Shown: piece after piece, positions 22,303-32,451 of the stretch
Position numbering within the stretch: the stretch's first letter is position 1
Layout: each line of letters opens with the position of its first letter
Virus record (IMG/VR): IMGVR_UViG_3300044678_001573
Location: 1-62,258 of that record
Source of the DNA: a virus
Reading direction: 5' to 3' (one strand)
DNA: 62,258 nucleotides
Position numbers and translations under genes: made by a program
Notes under the pieces: generated by a model
The model's input: the letters and a program-made list of their open reading frames with translations, nothing else
Told to the model about the DNA's origin: nothing
Databases searched by the model: none

Positions 22303-25300
22303 TTATTTGGTCGCTCCGATGGACATGCGAAGGGCTGCGGCTCGGAGGCGTTCGGTTGTCTTGGAGATTACCTCTTCCGCCTGTGCTCTGTCAAGCTGAA
22401 GCAGAGACTGACCCTGCTGCTTGATGAAGTCGCGGTAGAGCTTTCCGGTCTCAACCATGTACTTCTCCGCCTCAGCATCGGTCAGCTCACGACGGGTGGC
22501 ACCGCTGCCGACCGTGCGATTGGAGGGGTTGGCAGCACCCAGGAAAATCCCTCGGCGGTTCAGTTCTGCCAGCGTCTCGTATTCCGGCTCCTCGCGCGTG
22601 GCCGTGACGGCTCGACGCCAAGGCATACGGTTGAGTTTGACCGGCTCGCCGAAGATGTTGTAGAGCTTCTCGCCGGCAGCTTCAGTGCGGCGGAAGAAGG
22701 GGAGTTCCTTGGCGAAGTAGGCACCAAAGTCACGGGCCTTCCGAGTCTCAGGGTCCATGATCAGGTCAATGTCCTTGAGCATCCGGGGAACAAATCCGCC
22801 GACGTAGTTGGTCGAGAATTTGGCAAGCCACTGGGTCGCCCCCTCGACAGGGTCGGAACTGTAGGCCGACTTGCCGATCATGTCCATGAAGCCAGACAAC
22901 GCCGAGAGGTCTTTGAAGGAGAAGGCTCCAGCCCAAGCAGCTGACAGCAGCTTGTCTTCGAAATCCTTCTCTTCCCACTTCTCAGGGTTGAAGAGACGCT
23001 GGTCGTTGAGGTTGCCAACTGTTGCAATGATGGATGCAATCGGCCAAGCATTATAGTTAAACCCTATCCAACGCTCGCCATTCCACATTTCAATGGAGTA
23101 TGGAGTCCTATCGGAAGCTCGAAGTTGATTCTTCTTGTCAGGTGGCAGGCTTGACCACGAGCCGCTGATGCGGAACCCGCGCTTCTCATCATCCTCTTCA
23201 TCGGTCAGCGCCCGCAGGATGGTGACACCTGCAAGAACGGACAGCGAAAACCCGAGCGTCTGGTTCTGGATGATCATCGCCCGCATCGTCGGGGTCATGC
23301 CTTTCTCCTGAAGTCGGAGAAGACCAAGCCCCGGAGTAAAGCTCAGGATTTCGTTGAGTCGGTTACCGACGAAACGAATGAAGCGAAGCCCGGTTGGGTT
23401 TCTTGCGTTGGTCGCCGCAATGTAGTTGAGGTTCGCCATGAACCGCTTGGTGCGGCTCGCGGCTTCCTGTTGCGCCCTGACCTCATCGCGATACTTCCCA
23501 GCCTCGTTGATGTACTTGTTGGTCACGCCGAGAAGGGTGTGATAGACAATGCCACCGATGCCAGTCGGGTCGTTGGTGTAGGACACCACCTTGCCGATGT
23601 CGCGGGCTTCATCCAGAAGGCCGGGGTACTTCTTGTTGAGAAGCTCGTTGAGGATCTGGCGAGTGTAGGAGCTGACCTCGCGCTTCTGGCCCCAGGTCTT
23701 GTCGCCGCCAGCCATCTCGACCGCCTTGGCACGAGCCGCTGCCACGTCCTCCTTGGAGGGCATCCTAGCCCCTTCATACAACTCGCGGTTGTAGAACATG
23801 GCCATCTCCAACATGCCCTGAGTGGTGGCAGTGGAGTTGATGTGGTCGAACGCAGTCATCGCACGCTGCATACCCGCGTAGAAGTAGGGCATGATCTTCG
23901 CCCACGACGGGCGGTTCGGGTCCTTGATGATGCGCTCGAAGTAGTCGAACGGGTTGGCCGCTGCCGACCCTTCCGTGAGGTAGGTGTTGAGCGTATACTG
24001 GTAGTTGTCCAGCAGCTTCGGGTCGCCCGTGTAAAAGTAGCGGGCCGCTTCCAGAATGACATTGCCAAGCGCACGCAGGTAGGCCATGCCGGCACGGCCA
24101 GCCAGTTTGAACTCCCGCTTGCGGATCGCAAGGTCAGCCATGGACTGAGCCATGACGCGCATCCCGTTGAGCGCCGAGAACGCCATGTCGAACTGAGTGG
24201 CAAAGCCGGAGAGGACGCTGGTGACCCAGTAGTTGGAGAGGATGTCACCAAGCTCGGCCTTGAGATCCCGCTGCATGAGACGGATGGCCTCGATCATCAG
24301 ACCCTTGCGCTCGACCTCGGTGATGCCATCGGCCTGCGCACGCTGCATGAGATCCACGACCTGCTTGACCGTCTCCTCGTTGAGGGCAGGGATGCCGAAC
24401 TCCTCGGAGATGGCGTTGCGGAAGGCAGCGTCGTTGAAGAAGCCCGCGTTGATGTAGCGAAGCAGCTTCGGAGCCGACTTGACGATTTTGTCCTTGGAGT
24501 TGCCCTTGGCCCCAGGAAGGTTCATGCGCTTGAGCTGCGCCTCGAAGTTCTTCTTGCGCTTGGCTTCCCACACCTTGTCGATTTCAACGACCAGATCGCC
24601 GATCTCCTGCGGGGTGAGGCCGGCCAGAGCCGGGTCATTGCGGAGGGCGGCAAACAGGTCACGACGCCACTGGCGCTGGGTCTCCAACGGGCGGTCGAAC
24701 ATCTCACGCCAAGAGAGGTCACCGGTGATCTTGCCACGGAGCTTGTTGATGAGGTTCTCAAGGGCGGAGCCTTCAGCATCAAGCAGGCGCTCACGACGCT
24801 CGATCAAGCGGCGTCCGTAGGCTTGCGCCTCCCGAGCCTCTCGGGTCATGTTTCCTACATTGAAGAGAACCATCGCCGTCGCCTCGTTGACACCCGCCTT
24901 ACGGGCAGCTTCGAGGAACTCGGCCTGATCCATGGCCTTCTTGACGTGCTTGTTGTAAAGCTCCTGGGCGGCGACCCGACGCTTGTTGCGAACAGGCTGC
25001 GGAAGGGCAGGATCAGCGTAGAGAGTGGCGGCGTCGTTGATCGTCTTCTCGGCGAAACGCTGACCGGCCTGGGCTTCGTTGTAGCCACGGGTCGTCTCAC
25101 GGGCTTCGCGTTCCATCATGCCGACACCGTGCAGGGTGCTGGCCATGGCCCCTTCCACCCCAGCCGCCTCAGCTCGCGAGATGAACACGTCGAACGGCAG
25201 TCCGTCACGGACGTGCTCCTTGTAGAGTTCACGGATGGCAAGGACTTTGCGTTGCCGCTCTTCTTGAGGTAGCGCGGGGTCGGCAAGTCGAGATGCGACA

Positions 25301-31300: not shown

Positions 31301-32451
31301 CCAGCCAACTCAACCCCACGGGCGGCAAGCACGGAGGGGGCAGCAGCCACACCCTCGCCGAGCATTTCCAGGAACACGTCGGCGTAGTCAGTCTCCTGAC
31401 CCACTGCCTGCTGGGCCAGAGCTTCACCGACACCGGATGCTCCGATCTCGACAGCACCGGCTCCAACCGCACGAGCTGGCACGTTGAACCCGGCACGGGC
31501 TGCATCGGCCGCTGTTTTGGTGGCCTTTGCCATCTCAGGGGTGGCCATGGCTGCGCGAACAGCCGCGTCGTCGGCAAGATCGACACCGCTGCGGGTCAGC
31601 ACTTGTCGAGTCGCTTGGATGGCTGCGCGCTCGGGAGCGGCGAGGAGCGCACCAGCGCCCTTGAGGCCGAGAGTTTCAATGGTGCCGATGACGGCACCAC
31701 GGGTCAGGCCCGTCGTCAGACCTTCGCTGGCGATGTCTGGATTCTGGTCAAGTGCGGCGGCGATCTGCTCCCGCGTCATTCCAGCCGGGTCACCGATGCG
31801 TTCAACAAACCGCTGGTAGATCTCGCTGCCAGCCTCCAGTGCGGTGTTGGCCGCAGTGCCAGCCGCGATGCCACCGGCGATGCCGGTTGCAACAGCGCCA
31901 GGTCCGGTAGTGGGCAGGCCGACAAGACCGCCGGCAGCCGTACCAACAAGGCCAGCACCGAGGGTGATCGGCGTGGAGATAAGCGCGTTGGGGAGGGATT
32001 GGACAGCCGTCTTGAGGGCGGCACCCGGCTGACGAAGTGCAGCCATCGGCAGGTCAATCGCCTCGCTGAGTGTGGGGAGGAACCCACGGGCTTGCTTGAG
32101 TTCTTCGGCCTGCTTGTTGAGGTCTTCAAGGAACGCCACGTCTTCAGGCGTCTGAGCCTCCTGCAAGGCGCGCTGGGCCTCAGCCTGCTGTTGCAGGCCG
32201 GCAGCCATGTCGGCGGTGTCACCAGTCAGGGCGTTGAACGCCGTGCGAGCACCGCCAAGAGCTTGCCTGCCGCCTTGGTAGAGCGAGGTGCCGAGCTGCG
32301 AGAGGTAGCCGGGGGCTTCTTCTGGTGCAGCGGGGGGTGCAAGCTGGGAGCGAATGCCTGCAACTTCTGCGTCAATTTGATCCGGTGTCAGGTCAACCGG
32401 GCTATCAAATTCAACTGTTTGGCCGTCAACGTCAACCTGGTAGAGGGGCAT
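22303..32451 (-). CDS. Giant polyvalent internal virion protein with protease and ART domains
   Basis: 3382 residues, about a sixth of the genome. Visible parts in order: a short N-terminal domain; glycine/alanine-rich hydrophobic helices near 150-205; a low-complexity proline-alanine region; a zinc-metallopeptidase-like site HEIQH at 1622-1626 (an earlier HESFVH at 1360 is weaker); an ADP-ribosyltransferase of the polyvalent type ([13 protein letters not shown] near 1820, YDGVEISGD near 1910); long charged coiled coils; and a C-terminal region with hydrophobic helices ([14 protein letters not shown]) like the large polyvalent-protein-associated domains. By size, layout and place after the adaptor gene it is probably an ejection protein carried in the capsid that delivers enzymes into the host. 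The protease/ART part is A/T-richer and looks inserted. Confidence 0.85.

What the first reader, a model, noticed from the sequence alone, without database searches (positions are those of the whole stretch)
22303..32451. 3382-residue polyvalent ejection protein with protease and ADP-ribosyltransferase
One protein combines hydrophobic helices, an HEIQH zinc-protease site, a GYHGT-type ADP-ribosyltransferase and long coiled coils. If ejected with the DNA, it would deliver toxin-like enzymes against host defence or transcription at the start of infection. The protease/ART part (about 26690-27930) and another part (about 29050-29700) are A/T-richer, as if domains had been inserted into an older backbone.
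Basis: partly seen in the sequence, partly recalled or inferred. Interest (0 to 1): 0.75.

Follow-up and report, generated by a model that had tools for sequence, protein, structure and literature searches.

The report
Phage virion protein with swapped ADP-ribosyltransferase cassette
A phage encodes one giant protein, probably injected with its DNA, that belongs to the known 'polyvalent protein' class, and its toxin-like ADP-ribosyltransferase is a sharply bounded cassette nearly identical to ones found inside otherwise unrelated phage proteins, so these injected weapons appear to be swapped like interchangeable parts.

Summary
The ORF is real (22303-32451, minus strand, 3382 aa). It is a phage 'polyvalent protein' (Iyer et al. 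2017, PMC5512222), a kind already described with the same injection-and-processing hypothesis. Pfam finds LPD23, a zincin metallopeptidase and ART-PolyVal. HExxH and the downstream GE[IV]EAR glutamates are invariant in relatives. The ART keeps H1822 and D1913 but has Trp where Tyr is commonest.

New here: the ART is a discrete cassette (residues 1784-1969) with a 31-aa head, an exchangeable core and a 38-aa tail ending DIRFS. Its core is 91% identical (protein) to one inside an unrelated protein (L047) whose phage's terminase is only 36% identical to this phage's; identity falls to background at both edges. Against the closest whole-protein relative (L002) the core is the least similar part (25%; head 52%, tail 79%). 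The same head and tail also bracket a core with no detectable ART similarity, in three backbones. I read this as cassette exchange at conserved ends. Injection, catalysis, autoprocessing and host target remain inferred. The GC evidence is weak; only the ART, not the protease, is shown to be inserted.

The parts
22303..32451 (-). 3382-aa polyvalent protein ORF
31192..32451 (-). N-terminal Gly/Ala-rich, weakly hydrophobic region, residues 1-420
   Evidence: KD peaks 1.3-1.5 at 161-179, 253-271, 359-377; no relative in viral contigs
29572..31191 (-). Pro/Ala/Gln-rich linker, residues 421-960, lowest GC3 of the gene
28672..29571 (-). Region 961-1260 with degenerate zincin-like motif EEFVH (1053); possible counterpart after the ART in L002
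   Evidence: weak match E 3e-4 among 3 subjects, not significant in phmmer
28012..28647 (-). Zincin A, residues 1269-1480, HESFVH at 1360 (28357-28374)
   Evidence: 33% to L002 over this region; HExx(x)H 134 and 138 aa before LPD23 in L002 and L015
27799..27972 (-). LPD23 domain, residues 1494-1551
   Evidence: Pfam PF18838 E 1.9e-12
27112..27705 (-). Zincin B metallopeptidase, residues 1583-1780: HEIQH 1622, GEIEAR 1735
   Evidence: DUF6782 2.5e-6; HExxH and both Glu 14/14 in relatives not found through that motif; AF2 pLDDT mostly 80-96 over LPD23 and zincin B
26545..27102 (-). ART cassette, residues 1784-1969
   Evidence: 81.5% aa identity to L047 over 1784-1978, 76.4% to L048 over 1788-1982; DNA 87.6% over 517 bp (26569-27085) to L047 and 77.0% over 543 bp to L048; rest of the proteins unrelated
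27010..27102 (-). Cassette head (residues 1784-1814, helical cap D..Y..A..GD...AQ..VDEAA)
   Evidence: head found upstream of 84 of 89 tails
26659..27009 (-). ART core (residues 1815-1931), H1822, W1851, Y1863, D1913
   Evidence: 91% to L047, 86% to L048, 25% to L002; residue counts
26545..26658 (-). Cassette tail (residues 1932-1969, [33 protein letters not shown])
   Evidence: 79% to L002; DIR[FYW] at 40/49 cassette ends against 0.1% of background 30-aa windows
22306..25074 (-). C-terminal backbone, residues 2460-3382, mostly helical; hydrophobic segment 3065-3083
   Evidence: 30-33% to L002 and L040; low-confidence helical model
32455..36072 (-). Upstream late genes (287, 413, 175 and 320 aa); the 320-aa gene is conserved, with a similar gene order, in L002
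   Evidence: (48% to L002)
21622..22296 (-). Downstream 224-aa Cys-rich protein, next to the polyvalent gene also in L002 and L040

Best explanation
A virion-borne polyvalent protein: made late with the structural proteins, packaged and ejected with the DNA; one or both embedded zincins cut the chain into separate units, releasing an ART that ADP-ribosylates a host macromolecule early in infection. The ART sits in a slot with standard ends (31-aa head, 38-aa tail ending DIRFS), and phages exchange the core, or the whole cassette, by recombination in these conserved ends. Shown by sequence: architecture, conserved active-site residues, purifying selection, sharp cassette borders, recent horizontal transfer of the ART. 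Inferred: packaging, ejection, cleavage, ART activity, target, and homologous recombination as the exchange route.
For: Domains. Zincin B HExxH and the two downstream Glu invariant, 14/14 in relatives not found via that motif. ART H retained in 46/51 copies and D of YDG in 44/57. dN/dS 0.29 (L047) and 0.08 (L048). Cassette: 87.6% DNA identity to L047 over 517 bp with no other match in either gene, step-like borders, while the L047 terminase is 36% identical. In L002 the same slot holds a different ART core (25%) between head (52%) and tail (79%). L048 and L074 share backbone and ends but carry ART against non-ART cores. L112, found by its non-ART core alone, has two cassettes with unrelated-looking cores and tail DNA 83% identical over 103 bp. 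A search anchored on the tail alone found a head upstream in 84/89. Virion link: module-sharing H66 gp60 is recorded as MS-verified. Class precedent: PMC5512222.
Against: No experiment on this phage. The H66 link is 30% identity over about 155 aa of LPD23-MPTase only; the C-termini show no relationship. W1851 replaces the commonest Tyr (6 of 59 copies have Trp). In the AF2 model most of the tail belongs to the folded ART domain, so head, core and tail could simply be one large domain; most cores at standard ends (64 of 72) are ARTs. The L074-type core could be an ART too diverged to detect.
Confidence: 0.72

Rival explanations
1. Head, core and tail are one domain larger than Pfam PF18760; the whole cassette moved once or a few times by illegitimate recombination and the ends have no special role.
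For: AF2 folds residues 1786 to about 1965 with high confidence as one unit; 64 of 72 unique tail-bounded cores are ARTs.
Against: Core is less conserved than both ends between this protein and L002; non-ART cores between the same ends in L074, L112 and L070; tail DNA 83% identical between cassettes with different cores.
Confidence: 0.3
2. The DIR[FY]S tail is the recognition or cleavage site of the embedded zincins, so conservation reflects processing and not recombination.
For: Motif at 40/49 cassette ends, also in ART domains from bacterial genomes found by the Pfam model, where the preceding linker differs; AF2 order ends at the motif; autoprocessing predicted for the class.
Against: No cleavage data. 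The motif is essentially ART-tail specific, and L047, L048 and several ART loci match the LPD23-zincin module nowhere, although L047 is truncated.
Confidence: 0.2
3. The protein is mainly a structural or DNA-ejection channel protein and the enzymes are dispensable or decayed cargo.
For: C-terminal 900 aa is conserved backbone with a hydrophobic segment; Trp at the aromatic site of the ART; L015 carries a shortened ART core of 64 aa in the same kind of slot.
Against: Purifying selection on the ART, invariant zincin residues, repeated acquisition of ARTs.
Confidence: 0.15

Closest known systems
Phage polyvalent proteins (Iyer et al. 2017, J Bacteriol, PMC5512222)
   Same: Giant late-gene phage protein joining zincin MPTases, an ART of the HYD2-like clade and LPD domains; HExxH and HExxxH variants and multiple MPTases are described there.
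   Different: This combination and phage lineage are new records; the paper text does not mention LPD23 in its main text, linkers, or a conserved cassette head and tail.
Pseudomonas phage H66 gp60 and other F116-like phage proteins
   Same: LPD23-MPTase module, giant size, position among the late genes; H66 gp60 is recorded as MS-verified in virions.
   Different: No ART match to the window query in that region; C-terminus unrelated by profile comparison.
T4 Alt
   Same: Packaged, injected ART acting on host proteins early (as cited in PMC5512222).
   Different: R-S-E ART clade, single function, no embedded protease.
Polymorphic-toxin cassette exchange
   Same: Effector parts swapped at a constant joint; PMC5512222 raises the analogy for kinase loci.
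   Different: Here the cassette is internal and bounded on both sides, not a C-terminal tip.

Membership tests
Polyvalent proteins | Several domains of disparate biochemical activity in one large polypeptide | tested here: met
   LPD23, metallopeptidase, ART, plus a second zincin motif conserved in relatives
Polyvalent proteins | Gene linked to phage packaging or late genes | tested here: met
   In the late block beside a terminase-like gene; gene order shared with L002 and L040
Polyvalent proteins | Packaged in the virion and transferred to the host with DNA | not testable with these tools
   Only an indirect link through H66 gp60
ART-PolyVal (PF18760) | Score above the curated cut-off | tested here: met
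   58.9 bits against 31.2
ART-PolyVal / Tox-ART-HYD2 | His (strand 1), Tyr (strand 2), Asp (strand 5) active site | tested here: inconclusive
   H1822 present; D1913 the likely Asp; Trp at the aromatic position, also Trp in L047 and L048; family Y 24, F 18, W 6 of 59
ART superfamily | ART fold | tested here: inconclusive
   Confident AF2 domain; best PDB match is the diphtheria toxin catalytic domain, E 0.21, prob 0.66; BFVD matches are other PolyVal ARTs
Zincin MPTase | HExxH plus downstream Glu | tested here: met
   HEIQH and GEIEAR
N4-like virion RNA polymerase | T7-like RNAP module | tested here: not met
   No Pfam, PHROG or PDB sequence match for an RNAP

The most novel reading that the evidence does not exclude
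Injected phage effectors come as interchangeable parts: a core (ART or at least one unrelated domain) held between a standard head helix and a standard tail ending DIR[FY]S, exchanged between phages by recombination in the ends, with the tail perhaps also serving as the processing site for the embedded zincins.
Probability: 0.4. Interest if true: 0.65.

Novelty: new member of a known kind. Interest (0 to 1): 0.48.

Why it matters
It gives a dated-looking, sharply bounded case of an injected phage ART moving between unrelated virion proteins, and a sequence signature (head and tail) by which further swappable cores can be found. If the ends mark exchange or cleavage sites, the long-standing proposal that polyvalent proteins are cut apart by their own zincins becomes directly testable.

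Tried and rejected
GC islands as proof of insertion: rejected, GC3 is lowest in a low-complexity linker and the L047 copy is GC-richer, not poorer, than its own backbone. Protease as a late insert: not supported, it tracks the backbone in L002. Common C-terminal domain with H66, 8P and AF: hhalign finds none. Relatives of the N-terminal region and of the EExxH region: none in viral contigs; C-terminus: none in genome contigs or the phage collection. AF2 of the C-terminus: pLDDT 46, uninformative, not fold-searched. HEIQH conservation in L002-L036 is biased because that motif was a search pattern, so only independently found relatives were counted; likewise the tail search pattern inflates tail conservation in L047-L091, so the tail was rechecked in Pfam-found bacterial ARTs. 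First ART column count was misregistered and redone. Papers for the DIRYS/DIRFS motif: no relevant hit.

Full report
Observation. The minus-strand ORF 22303-32451 encodes 3382 aa without a stop. Pfam reports ART-PolyVal (residues 1820-1942, E 1.2e-15), LPD23 (1494-1551, E 1.9e-12) and two metallopeptidase models over HEIQH. PHROGs match only unnamed giant proteins and a metallo-protease. The sequence also holds HESFVH at 1360 and EEFVH at 1053. The record is a 62,258-base virus contig.

Context. The gene lies among late genes. The + strand gene 36126-37907 matches a putative terminase large subunit of Pseudomonas phage AF. The 320-aa gene 35110-36072 and the 224-aa gene 21622-22296 flank the polyvalent block also in L002 (48% and 41% identity), and the 224-aa gene adjoins it in L040. 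The portal-sized, capsid-like and 320-aa genes have no tblastn match among 50,697 phage records, so the virion genes belong to a lineage without sequenced isolates. In phage H66 the giant gp60, which shares the LPD23-MPTase module (30% over about 155 aa), is annotated as verified by mass spectrometry as part of the virion. That supports but does not prove packaging here, because the C-termini are not related by profile comparison.

Protease. LPD23 plus zincin B is the most widespread part. In relatives not retrieved through the HEIQH pattern, HExxH and both glutamates of GE[IV]EAR are conserved 14/14. Zincin A precedes LPD23 by 133 aa here, 134 in L002 and 138 in L015; ten of 30 relatives have HExx(x)H in the 350 aa before LPD23, against 12% for random stretches. 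HExxxH and multiple MPTases are described for the class. The EExxH region has a possible counterpart placed after the ART in L002, but the match is weak.

ART. The model of residues 950-1990 has high confidence over LPD23, zincin B and the ART. The best PDB match is the diphtheria toxin catalytic domain, weakly (E 0.21); BFVD matches are other PolyVal ART and LPD proteins. H1822 is kept in 46 of 51 alignable copies and the YDG aspartate in 44 of 57; the aromatic position is Y 24, F 18, W 6, and Trp in this protein and its two close relatives. dN/dS is 0.29 against L047 and 0.08 against L048 (the L048 dS is near saturation, so the second value is rough). The enzyme is therefore under purifying selection.

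Cassette transfer. L047 and L048 carry the ART at 81.5% and 76.4% protein identity, but no other part of either protein aligns. L047 is instead a C5-cytosine methylase plus possible phosphoribosyltransferase protein. At DNA level only 517 bp (87.6%) and 543 bp (77.0%) align. In 20-aa steps identity runs 0-20% before the cassette, 60-100% inside, 30% at the end and 0-10% after. The L047 terminase is 36% identical to this phage's, so the cassette moved long after the phages diverged. L048 and L074 also share a metallophosphoesterase with this phage at 68-73%, so these phages draw on a common gene pool. In L047 the cassette is GC-richer in third positions than its gene (0.63 against 0.45), so L047 may be the recipient; direction is not settled.

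Standard ends. Against L002, the nearest whole-protein relative, identity is 48% in LPD23-zincin B, 52% in the head, 25% in the core and 79% in the tail; the same core is 91% identical to L047. L048 and L074 share a backbone (34% over 1100 aa, 76% over the last 84 aa), but the core between head and tail is an ART in L048 and has no ART match in L074 (E 7; hhalign probability 0.2%). Searching with the L074 core alone returned L112, a different backbone, with the core again between head and tail, and with a second cassette next to it whose tail DNA is 83% identical over 103 bp although the cores do not align. L070 has a third, 38% identical copy of this core between the same ends. A search anchored on the tail alone gave 89 usable tails, of which 84 have a head within 450 aa; of 72 unique cores 64 are ARTs and 7 are not detectably so. 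Some of those seven may be divergent ARTs.

DIR[FY]S. DIR[FYW] occurs in 40 of 49 cassette ends and in 4 of 4378 background windows. Related motifs precede some cassettes (12 of 43 without an ART just upstream) and several LPD23 modules start with a similar string. ARTs found in bacterial genomes by the Pfam model, without the tail pattern, mostly keep the motif although the linker before it differs. In the model the confident fold ends at this motif. Whether it is a recombination joint, a cleavage site or the last strand of the domain is open. The held literature shows no description of it.

Mechanism (inferred). Packaging with the DNA, ejection, cutting by zincin B and/or A, and release of the ART to modify a host macromolecule early in infection, as proposed for the class. 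Steps shown by sequence: architecture, active-site conservation, selection, cassette transfer. Steps not shown: all biochemistry.

Novelty. The protein is a new member of a known kind. The recent ART transfer and the standard ends are, as far as the held papers show, new detail; the 2017 paper already suggested accretion of domains and, for kinase loci, cassette recombination.

Noticed in passing
L003:2696-24364: An open frame of at least 7223 aa, running to the end of the stretch, with at least two LPD23-zincin modules and an ART: among the longest phage proteins seen here.
   Followed up: partly
window 39291-39692 (-): 133-aa ORF with a long Thr-Pro repeat (TPTPTP...).
   Followed up: no
window 37861-39294 (-): Glycosyltransferase-2 fused to a methyltransferase, GC 0.52 against 0.60 for the window, likely an acquired gene in the late region.
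   Followed up: no
window 49563-50828, 52554-54857, 35110-36072 (-): Late genes with no tblastn match in 50,697 phage records, although L002 or L040 metagenome contigs encode relatives of two of them.
   Followed up: partly
window 41722-42456 (-); L048:8838-9596; L074:8421-9209: Metallophosphoesterase 68-73% identical in phages where it lies directly next to the ART-type polyvalent gene.
   Followed up: partly
L112 ORF 1273-10467; L055; L091: Proteins with several cassettes (ART or other cores) in a row.
   Followed up: partly
L039:1150-16581: Pseudomonas stutzeri phage 8P gp23, a 5145-aa annotated structural protein with the LPD23-MPTase module.
   Followed up: no
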